In this document: positions 6,489 through 10,120 of the stretch, one piece after another | Layout: each line of letters starts with the position of its first letter | Numbering within the stretch: the first letter of the stretch is position 1 | Virus record (IMG/VR): IMGVR_UViG_3300042566_001780 | Span: 1 to 64,000 of that record | DNA from: a virus | Length of the DNA stretch: 64,000 bases | Direction: 5' to 3' (one strand) | Notes under the pieces: generated by a model | Database searches by the model: none | What the model saw: the letters and a program-made list of their open reading frames with translations, nothing else | Told to the model about the DNA's origin: nothing | Translations under genes and position numbers: made by a program

Positions 6489-8459
6489 TCACTCTGCTAT
6501 AGTTGAGAACCCATGTTCTTTCTGCACTATGAGTTTCTTATCAAGTCTACCATCAATTAGTGGATGATGCGAAATAACATAGATTGATAGGGCTTCATCA
6601 CGACTCTTATTCTTCAAAATGCCAGTGATTGCATCAATACCACCAGGATCTAATTGACCATCAAGCTCATCAATCAACAAAATGTTGAATTGATTGTGCA
6701 ATCGGTGCAACACATCCCTAAAAGCTAAAGATAGAGCAGTATTTACCCGGCGTTTTTCGCCAGCAGACAAATTACCAAAGTCAAGTTCTCTACCATATTC
6801 AGAAACGGTGCAACTCATGTCGGCATCAAACTTGACGATATGGGGAAGACCAAGAGATGATGTGTAAAAGTTGATTCGGTCATTCAAAAATGGAACAGAG
6901 CGGTTAATAATTCTTTTTCGAATAAAAGAATCTTTACCAGTCAGTAACTTTAGCAAAAATTGTTGGTGATCAAGGCGCTTTTTGAGAGCATCAACCTTAG
7001 CTGTATCAATCACAACCTCATCTTCTAGCATAAGTTGCTCAAGAGTCGAGACATACGGATTTTCAGTTGATGCAAGATCCTCAATCCGCTGTTTGGAGAT
7101 GGCAGCATTCTGCCGTGCTTTCAACAAAATCTCAAGATTAGGCTTAGTGATTTTTGCCTTGACATCTTTCAACTTTTCTTGAAGAACAGCAAGATCAGAA
7201 TTAGATGCAGCTAATTCTGTATTCTTTAAATCAAGAGCAGTATTGTTCTCGATTAAAGATGTCTTAAGTGCTTCAAGTTTGTCTTTTGCTTCTGCATAAT
7301 CTTGCAAACAATAAGGACATTTGGCATCTTCCAAATGAGCAATATCATCCTGCTGCTTTTTGATTGTTTTCTGTAGATTGCTAATTGCTAACTTGATAGG
7401 TGTCAGTTTTGCATTTTGATTAGAAATTTGCAAAGTCAGTTGATCGCGTTCAGCATGCAGTAATTGTTCAGCTTCAAGATCATCAGATGATACTAAATCA
7501 AGTTCAGCTTGAAGCTTCTTGATTTCTGTATCTCGATTAGTTTCCCAGTTCAAAGCACGTTTTTCTGCATCATTGATGTGCTTTTTCTGTGTATCACGAG
7601 CTTGTTGTTGTTGAACAATAATTGCTTCTTGAACTTTAATATCACCTTCAGTTTGCTTTATAAGCTCTTTTAGCTTTACTGCTTTTTCTGAAAGAAGGGT
7701 GATGTTAAGCAGCTCTTCAATATGAAGTCGTTGCTGAGCAATAGGCAGTGCTAAGAATGCCTGAGAATTACCAGAGAAGATGACCGTTTTGGTAAACAGT
7801 TCAAAAGAAATTCCAATGATGTCTTGGATAAAATTGTCGCACTCAGTAACACCTTTGCCTGGTGTAATATCATCACCATTCTTTGTGATTGAGATTGAAT
7901 ATGATTCTCCACGAGAGCGAATGATTTCATATTCATCCAATCCTTTAGTGAAAGAAATACCAACCTGCATCAACGTGTTTTTTGTAGCATTTGTGCTATT
8001 GATAAGTCGTTGAAGACTAATGTTATCGAATGGCTTGTTGAATAGGACATAGCAGAGTGCATTAATGATAGTAGTGTTGTGAGATACTATATCGTTAGTA
8101 TAGTATCGATGATCATCAGAATCTACCTGAACATCGTACATATTTTCAAATCGATCAGTTTGAATAATCGACTTGATTTCACTATCACCAGCCCGTGTTT
8201 TTATTTTGTTGCCAACTTTAAGGTTCTTGACAAAAATTTCGTTGAAACTTTCATCAAACACAATGTGATCATCAGCACACTCAAGAGTAAATCCATCCCC
8301 AGTTTCAAGAATGAAAACTTGATACTGGATAGTCTTAACTACTTTTGAAATAGGTTGAAAACCACTATCAGTCTCAATCTCAAAATTTGAAACATCAAAG
8401 CTTTCAAGAATTTTTCGACTGACTATTTCTGAAGGTTTAAACAATTGGTTATGATTCAT
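6489..8459 (-). CDS. 46: C-intein fused to the main part of recombination nuclease gp46 (SbcC/Rad50-like)
   Basis: A 656-residue product. Residues 1-128 are the C-terminal piece of a split intein: block-B-like FTLECADDHIVF, then a C-terminal block ending HRYYTNDIVSHN. The host protein resumes at TTIINALCYVLF, the second half of the Walker A P-loop. Further on come coiled coils with a zinc hook CPYC (near residue 390), an ABC signature LSAGEKRRVNTAL, and Walker B LLIDELDGQLDPGG. gp46 with gp47 resects DNA ends for T4-type recombination. The start overlaps the stop of the upstream gene (ATGA), giving translational coupling; there is no Shine-Dalgarno. Protein trans-splicing with the 84-residue partner is needed to rebuild the P-loop. 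Confidence 0.92.
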   Translation of the reverse strand: MNHNQLFKPSEIVSRKILESFDVSNFEIETDSGFQPISKVVKTIQYQVFILETGDGFTLECADDHIVFDESFNEIFVKNLKVGNKIKTRAGDSEIKSIIQTDRFENMYDVQVDSDDHRYYTNDIVSHNTTIINALCYVLFNKPFDNISLQRLINSTNATKNTLMQVGISFTKGLDEYEIIRSRGESYSISITKNGDDITPGKGVTECDNFIQDIIGISFELFTKTVIFSGNSQAFLALPIAQQRLHIEELLNITLLSEKAVKLKELIKQTEGDIKVQEAIIVQQQQARDTQKKHINDAEKRALNWETNRDTEIKKLQAELDLVSSDDLEAEQLLHAERDQLTLQISNQNAKLTPIKLAISNLQKTIKKQQDDIAHLEDAKCPYCLQDYAEAKDKLEALKTSLIENNTALDLKNTELAASNSDLAVLQEKLKDVKAKITKPNLEILLKARQNAAISKQRIEDLASTENPYVSTLEQLMLEDEVVIDTAKVDALKKRLDHQQFLLKLLTGKDSFIRKRIINRSVPFLNDRINFYTSSLGLPHIVKFDADMSCTVSEYGRELDFGNLSAGEKRRVNTALSLAFRDVLHRLHNQFNILLIDELDGQLDPGGIDAITGILKNKSRDEALSIYVISHHPLIDGRLDKKLIVQKEHGFSTIAE

Positions 8460-8560
8460 TTTTGCTTTGCAATCATTTCATGAAATTCACCAATTTTCAT
8501 AGTGAATAATTCTTTAGTAGTTTTATCTCTGATAGTGATCATTACGTCATGTGTGACACA
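8076..8560 (-). other. Atypically split intein in the gp46 P-loop
   Basis: The N-intein (34 residues, CVTHDVMITIRD...) follows GSNGSGK at 8560-8459. The C-intein (128 residues, ending SHN) spans 8459-8076 and is followed by TT. The insertion is therefore GSNGSGK|intein|TT. The break lies between block A and block B, giving a very short N-piece as in the AceL-TerL type of atypically split inteins, not the usual break near residue 100. Cys1, the penultimate His, terminal Asn and +1 Thr are all present. No homing endonuclease domain is visible. Confidence 0.9.
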
Positions 8561-8710
8561 TTTGCCGGATCCATTAGAGCCTCCAGTATCGAGGTTTTTA
8601 CCCTCAACCAATATAGTGCTTGGTTGAGATAAATCAATTTCATTTACATTTTGACCAAAGCTTAAAAAGTTACTAAACCAAAGTTTGTTGAATGTAATAT
8701 CATTACTCAT
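8456..8710 (-). CDS. 46: N-terminal fragment of gp46 fused to a short N-intein
   Basis: An 84-residue product. Residues 1-50 match the N-terminus of SbcC/Rad50-type gp46: the start FNKLWFSNFLSFG, then ILVEGKN and the first half of Walker A, GGSNGSGK. Residues 51-84 are the N-intein beginning with the catalytic Cys (CVTHDVMITIRD). I chose ATG 8710, which overlaps the stop of the upstream gene (ATGAGTAA); the longer frame from 8761 would lie inside that gene. By itself this protein has no function; trans-splicing joins it to the 6489-8459 product. Confidence 0.9.
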   Translation of the reverse strand: MSNDITFNKLWFSNFLSFGQNVNEIDLSQPSTILVEGKNLDTGGSNGSGKCVTHDVMITIRDKTTKELFTMKIGEFHEMIAKQK

Positions 8711-9079: not shown

Positions 9080-10120
9080 TCATTTCCTTTCATCAAACAA
9101 TTCGTCAAAAATAGTAACTAAAGTATTTGGGTCAATTGTGGCCGTAGGAGTAACGCCGTCCTTGATTAATTGACGAACAGTATTATCAAGTTGATCAAGA
9201 GCATCATCCTCAACTTCAAGTCCTTCAGATATTGCTTGCTTTTGATTAACTGCATCCTGTTCAATAACAAACTCTCTCAATTGATACGCTTCAATCATTT
9301 CTGCTTTAAGAGCCTGAACATCAGTATAACCAATATCAATATCAAGTAGACATTTGACGCGAGAACCAGGTTTAAAGTCTGCATTTTCTGCAGCTAATAC
9401 ATGTGATAACCGAGTCTTGTAGAATAATGGGCACTTAGGATAATCATAGAAAATGATGTCTTCAGATTCAGTGTCTAACATAGCAGCACCGCGCTCTGAA
9501 TCACCAGCATCCCCATAGTTTGTTGGGAATGCATTTCCAATGTAAACTACATTACCAGAAAACTGGCGCTTATGAAAATGCCCAGATAAAATGTATCGAG
9601 GACCCGTAAATTGCTTAGCATCTGGACCATGATCAAGAACTTTATCCTGACCAGTCACAACAAAGTTTCTAAATTCAAAATGGCCTAGCACATATTTGTA
9701 AGAGTTAATTTTGGCTGCAAGCTCTGGATACTCTGGATGAAACAAATAAGGAGCAGCATACATCTCTTTATTAATTTCTTGTGGTTCTGATATGATCCTG
9801 AAATTTTTGAAATCAGAAAATGGATCGGTTGAAAAAATATTTCGATTAGATCTGTAAAAAAGATCATGGTTACCAACTATAAAGAAAACTGGCAACCCAA
9901 GATTATCAAGTTTTCTTGCAGCAGCATGGGAAGAATTTAGAGTTCTAACACTGATTTGGTTTCGATTCTCATACCAATCACCCAAAAAAGCAATGTGAGT
10001 AGCTTTTTCGCGAATAGCTAGATCGCAGAACCAATCAATGAACTCATGACAGTCATTCAGATGTTGTTCTGAGTTGAGTCTTGCACCAAAATGAATGTCA
10101 GTAAAGCAAAGTAATTTCAT
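9080..10120 (-). CDS. 47: Recombination endonuclease subunit gp47 (SbcD/Mre11-like)
   Basis: A 346-residue calcineurin-like phosphoesterase. Visible metal-site motifs in order: LCFTDIHFGARL, FLGDWYENRN, FIVGNHDLFYR, VLGHFEFRN and LSGHFHKR. gp47 is the nuclease half of the T4 gp46/gp47 complex that resects double-strand ends. The C-terminus after about residue 250 is acidic and probably contacts gp46. ATG 10120 is used because the upstream TTG 10132 has no support; no clear Shine-Dalgarno is visible. A terminator hairpin of the sigma-factor gene lies immediately upstream, so expression may depend on readthrough or a promoter I could not locate. Confidence 0.93.
   Translation of the reverse strand: MKLLCFTDIHFGARLNSEQHLNDCHEFIDWFCDLAIREKATHIAFLGDWYENRNQISVRTLNSSHAAARKLDNLGLPVFFIVGNHDLFYRSNRNIFSTDPFSDFKNFRIISEPQEINKEMYAAPYLFHPEYPELAAKINSYKYVLGHFEFRNFVVTGQDKVLDHGPDAKQFTGPRYILSGHFHKRQFSGNVVYIGNAFPTNYGDAGDSERGAAMLDTESEDIIFYDYPKCPLFYKTRLSHVLAAENADFKPGSRVKCLLDIDIGYTDVQALKAEMIEAYQLREFVIEQDAVNQKQAISEGLEVEDDALDQLDNTVRQLIKDGVTPTATIDPNTLVTIFDELFDERK

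What the first reader, a model, noticed from the sequence alone, without database searches (positions are those of the whole stretch)
8076..8710. Atypically split intein interrupts the gp46 P-loop and is shared by two overlapping genes
The 84-residue upstream gene ends with GSNGSGK followed by a 34-residue N-intein. The next gene starts with a 128-residue C-intein ending SHN, then continues TTIINAL. Trans-splicing would regenerate GSNGSGKTT, the Walker A motif. The break lies between blocks A and B, giving an unusually short N-piece like AceL-TerL-type inteins. The genes overlap as ATGA, which would keep the two products equimolar. gp46 would be inactive until splicing, so the phage could gate recombination nuclease activity.
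Basis: partly seen in the sequence, partly recalled or inferred. Interest (0 to 1): 0.85.

Follow-up and report, generated by a model that had tools for sequence, protein, structure and literature searches.

The report
Split intein interrupting phage gp46 P-loop
A large bacterial virus makes its DNA-repair ATPase gp46 as two separate proteins that a self-removing "split intein" most likely stitches together across the ATP-binding loop; it is a real, well-conserved member of a known kind of mobile element, seen here after losing its homing nuclease, with no evidence that it acts as a regulatory switch.

Summary
Confirmed: window 8710-8456(-) encodes 50 residues of gp46 ending GSNGSGK plus a 34-aa N-intein. 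8459-6489(-) encodes a 128-aa C-intein ending SHN, then gp46 resuming at TTIINAL. The halves match adjacent positions of the phage SbcC/gp46 profile (…333 | 334…). The C-piece folds as a HINT domain closest to VidaL, and no other gp46 was found in the 291,687-bp record. It is not an isolated oddity or a likely frameshift error. About 22 distinct environmental phage loci carry gp46 broken at the same residue (GK^T), with 31-39-aa N-pieces and 122-128-aa C-pieces. Seventeen have a homing-endonuclease-like ORF between the halves. Five, including the window, lack it, and three of those keep remnants of its C-terminus. Related inteins and endonucleases occupy Walker A motifs of TerL, and related inteins those of gp41-type helicases. 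So this is a HEN-less 'fractured gene' with an atypically split class 1 intein, maintained as a mobile element whose splicing is essential for gp46. Splicing in trans is inferred. The 'gate' and 'equimolar' ideas have no support. By-catch outside the window: the same phage has at least five further inteins and a striking T4 gene-60-like translational bypass cassette in its topoisomerase gene.

The parts
8561..8710 (-). gp46 N-extein, 50 aa, MSNDIT...GSNGSGK (first part of Walker A)
   Evidence: phrog_77 positions 293-333, E 3.4e-6
8459..8560 (-). N-intein, 34 aa, CVTHDVMITIRDKTTKELFTMKIGEFHEMIAKQK; Cys1 = block A
   Evidence: Cys1 and Gly24 invariant among 13 relatives, 45-47% identical to the N-parts of Vibrio-phage TerL inteins
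8456..8459 (-). ATGA overlap of the stop of the N-gene and the start of the C-gene, in CAAAAATGA; no Shine-Dalgarno-like motif before the C-gene ATG
8076..8459 (-). C-intein, 128 aa: block B ADDHIV, block F MYDVQVDSDDHRYYTN, block G DIVSHN; +1 residue Thr
6489..8075 (-). gp46 C-extein, 528 aa, TTIINAL... (rest of Walker A through Walker B), then stop
   Evidence: phrog_77 positions 334-954, E 5.9e-72
9080..10120 (-). gp47 (SbcD/Mre11-like) partner gene upstream in the same direction; context
   Evidence: phrog_100 E 6e-57, PF00149
8703..9083 (-). small ORF of unknown function between gp47 and the gp46 N-gene; context
   Evidence: no family hit

Best explanation
The two overlapping genes encode the halves of a phage gp46 (Rad50/SbcC-like ATPase) separated by an atypically split class 1 intein inserted between Lys and Thr of the Walker A motif. 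The 34-aa N-intein and 128-aa C-intein associate after translation. Cys1 attacks, Thr+1 takes over the acyl group, Asn128 cyclises, and the exteins are joined as GSNGSGK-TTIINAL to give a 578-aa gp46. The arrangement is a HEN-less stage of a mobile 'fractured gene'. In most relatives a free-standing Vsr-like homing endonuclease lies between the halves; here it was lost and the halves closed up to an ATGA overlap, the downstream half probably being translated by coupling. It persists because it sits in an essential motif where only exact removal or splicing keeps gp46 alive, not because it regulates recombination. Shown here: anatomy, homology, conserved catalytic residues, HINT fold, purifying selection in relatives, HEN presence and fossils in relatives. 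Inferred: trans-splicing itself, HEN activity, HEN loss in this lineage, translational coupling.
For: Exact reconstitution of the gp46 profile across the break; no other gp46 found. Intein domain and fold. Catalytic residues (block B His65, Asp109, His117, His127, Asn128) invariant in 18 C-inteins. Same split point in about 22 distinct loci, 17 with a 365-388-aa ORF between the halves. HEN C-terminal fossils in the HEN-free relatives L044 (34 aa, 76%, 1e-19), L224 (20 aa, 85%, 4e-11) and L214 (9 aa). Pairwise dN/dS about 0.06-0.13 in three usable pairs of relatives. The two closest gp46 relatives are also split: L029, no HEN, 30-nt gap; L031, with HEN. The HENs resemble those between TerL halves and those in this phage's TerL, UvsX and topoisomerase genes.
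Against: No splicing experiment exists. The window has no detectable HEN fossil, so HEN loss here is by analogy. One extra A in the A5 run would fuse the halves into a single 162-aa intein, so a single-base assembly error cannot be strictly excluded; the exact junction was not found in any other contig, though near-identical records may be left out of that search. The HEN assignment is weak by Pfam (PF18741, below cut-off).
Confidence: 0.86

Rival explanations
1. The split acts as a control point: gp46/gp47 nuclease activity is withheld until trans-splicing, with timing or conditions set by intein association or redox at Cys1.
For: The break is in Walker A, so neither half can bind ATP alone; conditional splicing is described for other P-loop inteins in the literature (papers listed, e.g. 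DnaB inteins).
Against: No regulatory signal or conserved junction; gene spacing varies from -17 to +1065 nt. The same family sits in TerL and gp41-type helicases, and this phage has several other inteins. The HEN association and fossils fit a mobile element.
Confidence: 0.06
2. Assembly or sequencing error: the real gene has one more A in the A5 run and encodes a contiguous cis-splicing intein of about 162 aa.
For: The frames differ by exactly one base at CAAAAATGA; contiguous TerL inteins without a HEN have similar lengths, 159-179 aa.
Against: Every gp46 relative of this family with both halves is split at the homologous place, including HEN-free ones with real spacers and stops (L029 +30, L224 +54, L044 +128) and L214 with a 17-nt overlap. 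A5 is a short run.
Confidence: 0.06
3. Both routes operate: most ribosomes end at TGA and restart at ATG, while some slip -1 (AAA to AAA at the stop codon) and make a contiguous, cis-splicing precursor.
For: CAA-AAA-TGA allows perfect -1 re-pairing of tRNA-Lys just before the stop (sequence); no Shine-Dalgarno before the C-gene.
Against: No classic X-XXY-YYZ heptamer; the RNA around the junction is no more structured than shuffles (z 0.75; downstream -1.5); relatives with long spacers cannot do it.
Confidence: 0.08
4. Dead element: the pieces no longer splice and gp46 is inactive in this phage.
For: No direct test of activity.
Against: All splicing residues are intact; both exteins have full-length open frames; C-inteins of relatives are under purifying selection; no replacement gp46 was found.
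Confidence: 0.04

Closest known systems
P-loop (GK^TT) inteins of TerL in Ackermannviridae and related phages (Kuja, VPALA, VP-1, CBA120)
   Same: Same intein family (C-part 41-47% identical by blastp), same position between Lys and Thr of the P-loop, Cys1/Thr+1
   Different: Contiguous, 159-179 aa, in terminase; here split into 34+128 aa in gp46
AceL-TerL / GOS-TerL / Cat-TerL atypically split inteins
   Same: Short N-piece (25-37 aa) and long C-piece (104-115 aa), split between blocks A and B (PMC11766414)
   Different: TerL with Cys+1; Ser1 in GOS-TerL. This phage has a separate split TerL intein with Cys+1 at G000:86.6 kb
Fractured genes (Dassa et al. 2009: split inteins with a free-standing, often Vsr-like HEN between the halves)
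   Same: Relatives of the window locus show exactly this organisation
   Different: The window has lost the HEN and the genes overlap by 4 nt. Whether gp46 was among the enzyme types in that paper could not be checked: it is not held; the description of it is from memory
VidaL intein (PDB 6vgv)
   Same: Best sequence-profile and fold match to a solved structure
   Different: Only about 30% identity in the fold alignment
Contiguous gp46 inteins of Salicola phage SCTP-2 and contigs L060-L062
   Same: Same gp46 GK^TT insertion point
   Different: Single-gene inteins with a long, homing-endonuclease-like internal region, starting with Ala (SCTP-2) or Ser; a separate colonisation of the same site

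Membership tests
Class 1 intein (HINT splicing domain) | Cys/Ser1, block B His, block F Asp/His, block G His-Asn, nucleophile at +1 | tested here: met
   C1; ADDH (H65); D109, H117; S126-H127-N128; T+1; conserved in 18 relatives
Class 1 intein (HINT splicing domain) | HINT fold | tested here: met
   AlphaFold model of the C-piece pLDDT 82.5; Foldseek best hits all inteins, VidaL E 2.6e-7
Class 1 intein (HINT splicing domain) | Protein splicing activity | not testable with these tools
   needs expression
Naturally split intein | Two separately translated genes, each extein plus intein piece | tested here: met
   Two frames overlapping by ATGA; same break in about 21 other distinct loci, some with intervening stops and a HEN ORF; separate translation itself is inferred
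Atypically split (AceL-TerL-like) intein | Break between blocks A and B with a short N-piece | tested here: met
   34 aa N, 128 aa C; family range 31-39 / 122-128
AceL-TerL orthologue | TerL extein with Cys at +1 | tested here: not met
   Extein is gp46 with Thr+1; AceL-TerL data from PMC11766414
Fractured gene (split intein with HEN between the halves) | Free-standing homing endonuclease gene between the halves | tested here: not met
   Absent in the window; present in 17 relatives; fossils in L044, L224, L214, none detectable in the window. The window is a probable HEN-less derivative
Phage gp46 / SbcC-like subunit | Walker A, central coiled coil, Walker B; gp47 partner gene nearby | tested here: met
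   phrog_77 E 5.9e-72; gp47 (phrog_100, 6e-57) upstream

The most novel reading that the evidence does not exclude
One lineage of HEN-coupled, atypically split inteins specialises in Walker A codons and has moved as a cassette between non-homologous phage ATPases (TerL, gp46, gp41-type helicase). HENs of the same kind also break UvsX and topoisomerase genes, so a conserved ATP-binding motif serves as a cross-gene homing target. The window is a late stage where the HEN is gone, the halves have closed to a 4-nt overlap, and one base separates a split from a contiguous intein.
Probability: 0.45. Interest if true: 0.6.

Novelty: new member of a known kind. Interest (0 to 1): 0.45.

Why it matters
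It adds gp46 (Rad50-like) to the phage genes broken by atypically split inteins; no paper on an intein in gp46 was found in the held library. It supplies about 22 new N/C pairs with Thr+1 and 31-39-aa N-pieces, useful for semi-synthesis and orthogonal splicing. It also gives a HEN-bearing, HEN-fossil and HEN-free series for how split inteins arise and persist.

Tried and rejected
P0002 alone in viral contigs found nothing; an alignment over the splice junction did. XacN1 and RAS14 matches that seemed to extend into the intein are gp47-gp46 fusions without inteins. The discordance between extein and intein similarity (window vs L031: extein 57%, intein 38.5%; vs L185: 36% and 59.5%) looked like horizontal intein replacement, but a window+L031+L032 intein clade is not rejected (AU p 0.60), so no claim is made. 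Monophyly of gp46 inteins versus TerL inteins is unresolved (p 0.50), so direction and number of jumps are not claimed. RNA structure for a programmed frameshift was not significant. A profile of the N-pieces is too short to hit solved inteins. An exact junction scan gave 0 hits.

Full report
OBSERVATION. On the minus strand, 8710-8456 encodes 84 aa ending GSNGSGK + CVTHDVMITIRDKTTKELFTMKIGEFHEMIAKQK, and 8459-6489 encodes 656 aa beginning with a 128-aa piece ending ...YYTNDIVSHN, followed by TTIINALCYVLF.... Stop and start overlap as ATGA.

WHAT IT IS. The two exteins hit the phage SbcC/gp46 profile phrog_77 at 293-333 and 334-954, so the break removes nothing from gp46. gp47 lies upstream (phrog_100). 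A genome-wide search found no other gp46 in the 291,687-base virus record (a third weak phrog_77 match at 129 kb, E 0.003, covers only a middle part of the profile). The C-piece reaches the TIGR01443 cut-off and hits solved split inteins. As a family profile it hits VidaL at 1.3e-11 and gp41-1 at 1e-7. Its AlphaFold model (pLDDT 82.5; only residues 1-14 poorly predicted) has inteins as its best PDB matches, VidaL first with TM 0.72. All class 1 catalytic positions are intact and invariant in 18 relatives.

RELATIVES. A scan of viral contigs with an alignment across the splice junction gave 43 loci, and a scan with C-inteins gave 80 more. After removing duplicates, about 22 distinct gp46 loci have both halves: N-intein 31-39 aa beginning with Cys, C-intein 122-128 aa, same insertion point, same break. 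Seventeen have a 365-388-aa ORF between the halves. These ORFs carry repeated YW..RG[WY]..EEA motifs and an ..IEYxGDFWH.. nuclease-like core, with weak PF18741 (MTES_1575 REase) hits. This resembles the Vsr-like HEN of the published 'fractured genes' arrangement, a resemblance recalled and not directly tested because that paper is not held. Five loci lack the ORF: the window (gap -4), L029/L030/L032 (+30), L224 (+54), L044 (+128) and L214 (-17). Translated gap sequence in L044 (34 aa, 76%, 1e-19), L224 (20 aa, 85%, 4e-11) and L214 (9 aa) is the C-terminal tail of that ORF, so HEN-free forms arise by HEN loss. In HEN-bearing relatives the C-gene ATG lies inside the last HEN codons in another frame. 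The window has no detectable remnant.

NOT A SEQUENCING SLIP, PROBABLY. One extra A in CAAAAATGA would fuse the halves, so this was considered seriously. The homologous split in all relatives with both halves found, including HEN-free ones with real stops and spacers, makes a true split much more likely. Pairwise dN/dS of about 0.056 (L045/L039), 0.07 (L046/L039) and 0.13 (L186/L189) in C-inteins of relatives indicates that the pieces are functional.

FAMILY. The same intein family sits in the P-loop (GK^T/S) of TerL, both contiguous (Ackermannviridae phages) and split (many contigs), and of gp41-type helicases (L221, L240). HEN ORFs between TerL halves, and those in this phage's own TerL, UvsX and topoisomerase genes, are homologous to the gp46 HENs, up to 49% identity. 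A tree of 80 C-inteins clusters by gene but with poor resolution; one origin of gp46 inteins is not rejected (AU p 0.50). So relatedness across genes is shown; direction and number of jumps are not. The same gp46 site has also been entered by separate contiguous inteins with long endonuclease-like internal regions (SCTP-2; L060-L062).

MECHANISM. Most likely: the N-gene is translated from its own start, the C-gene by termination-reinitiation at ATGA (no Shine-Dalgarno before it); the pieces assemble, splice, and give 578-aa gp46. Coupling normally lowers, not equalises, the downstream product (PMC2988022). Without splicing neither half has a full Walker A. That makes splicing essential but is not evidence that it is used as a switch.

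VERDICT. Observation right; interpretation right on structure, unsupported on regulation. A new gene context within a known kind (atypically split, fractured-gene inteins), valuable mainly as a family with a visible HEN-loss series. Membership in 'fractured genes' in the strict sense fails for the window itself because the HEN is absent.

BY-CATCH. The same phage has at least five further inteins. At G000 about 275.2 kb it has a topoisomerase gene whose TOPRIM coding is broken by a 47-nt gap resembling the T4 gene 60 bypass: GGA take-off, UAG, UUCG hairpin, AAAGAGTTATTT-GGA landing, same protein position, endonuclease-like insert upstream. A 2010 review called this bypass apparently unique to T4 (PMC3014915). 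This deserves its own study.

Noticed in passing
Outside the window, same virus record: G000:C1 about 275,244-275,293 (locus L028 6245-6294): Candidate T4 gene-60-like translational bypass in a type II topoisomerase. Frame ...GKLIVLSDQDLDG ends at GGA-TAG, then the UUCG hairpin TAGCTTCGGCTATCC, a 47-nt gap ending AAAGAGTTATTT-GGA, resuming FHVSSLLLSFWAKYWPELF. T4 (L289): 50-nt gap TAGCCTTCGGGCTATC...AAGAGATTATTGGA at DADHDG^LGSIY...NWPELF. GAG lies 6 nt before the landing GGA here, as described for T4 (PMC3014915), and both have an endonuclease-type insert upstream.
   Followed up: partly
G000:C1 84,148-87,752 (locus L026): TerL broken twice by split inteins: one in the P-loop (LGK^C... / HN^TT) with a HEN ORF between the halves, one further on (Cys1, ICHN^C, overlapping ORFs) resembling the AceL-TerL type.
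   Followed up: partly
G000:C1 101,318-104,312 (locus L027): RecA/UvsX-like gene split at its P-loop region (GPSG^SGKS) with a 413-aa HEN-like ORF between the halves.
   Followed up: partly
G000:C1 106,920-109,634 (locus L027): Contiguous intein in NrdA (CLAGN...NILVHN^C).
   Followed up: no
G000:C1 270,629-275,677 (locus L028): Topoisomerase large subunit fragmented by a split intein (FTEGD^CLFED... / LISHN^SARSS) and two endonuclease-like ORFs.
   Followed up: partly
L002 (XacN1) and L003 (RAS14): gp47 and gp46 are fused into one protein: about 1100 aa in XacN1; in RAS14 the annotated ORF (897 aa) starts within the gp47 part.
   Followed up: no
L004 (Salicola phage SCTP-2) and L010: SCTP-2 gp46 has a contiguous intein starting with Ala at the same GK^TT site, and its TerL gene starts with a separate C-intein and ends with what looks like another N-intein.
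   Followed up: no
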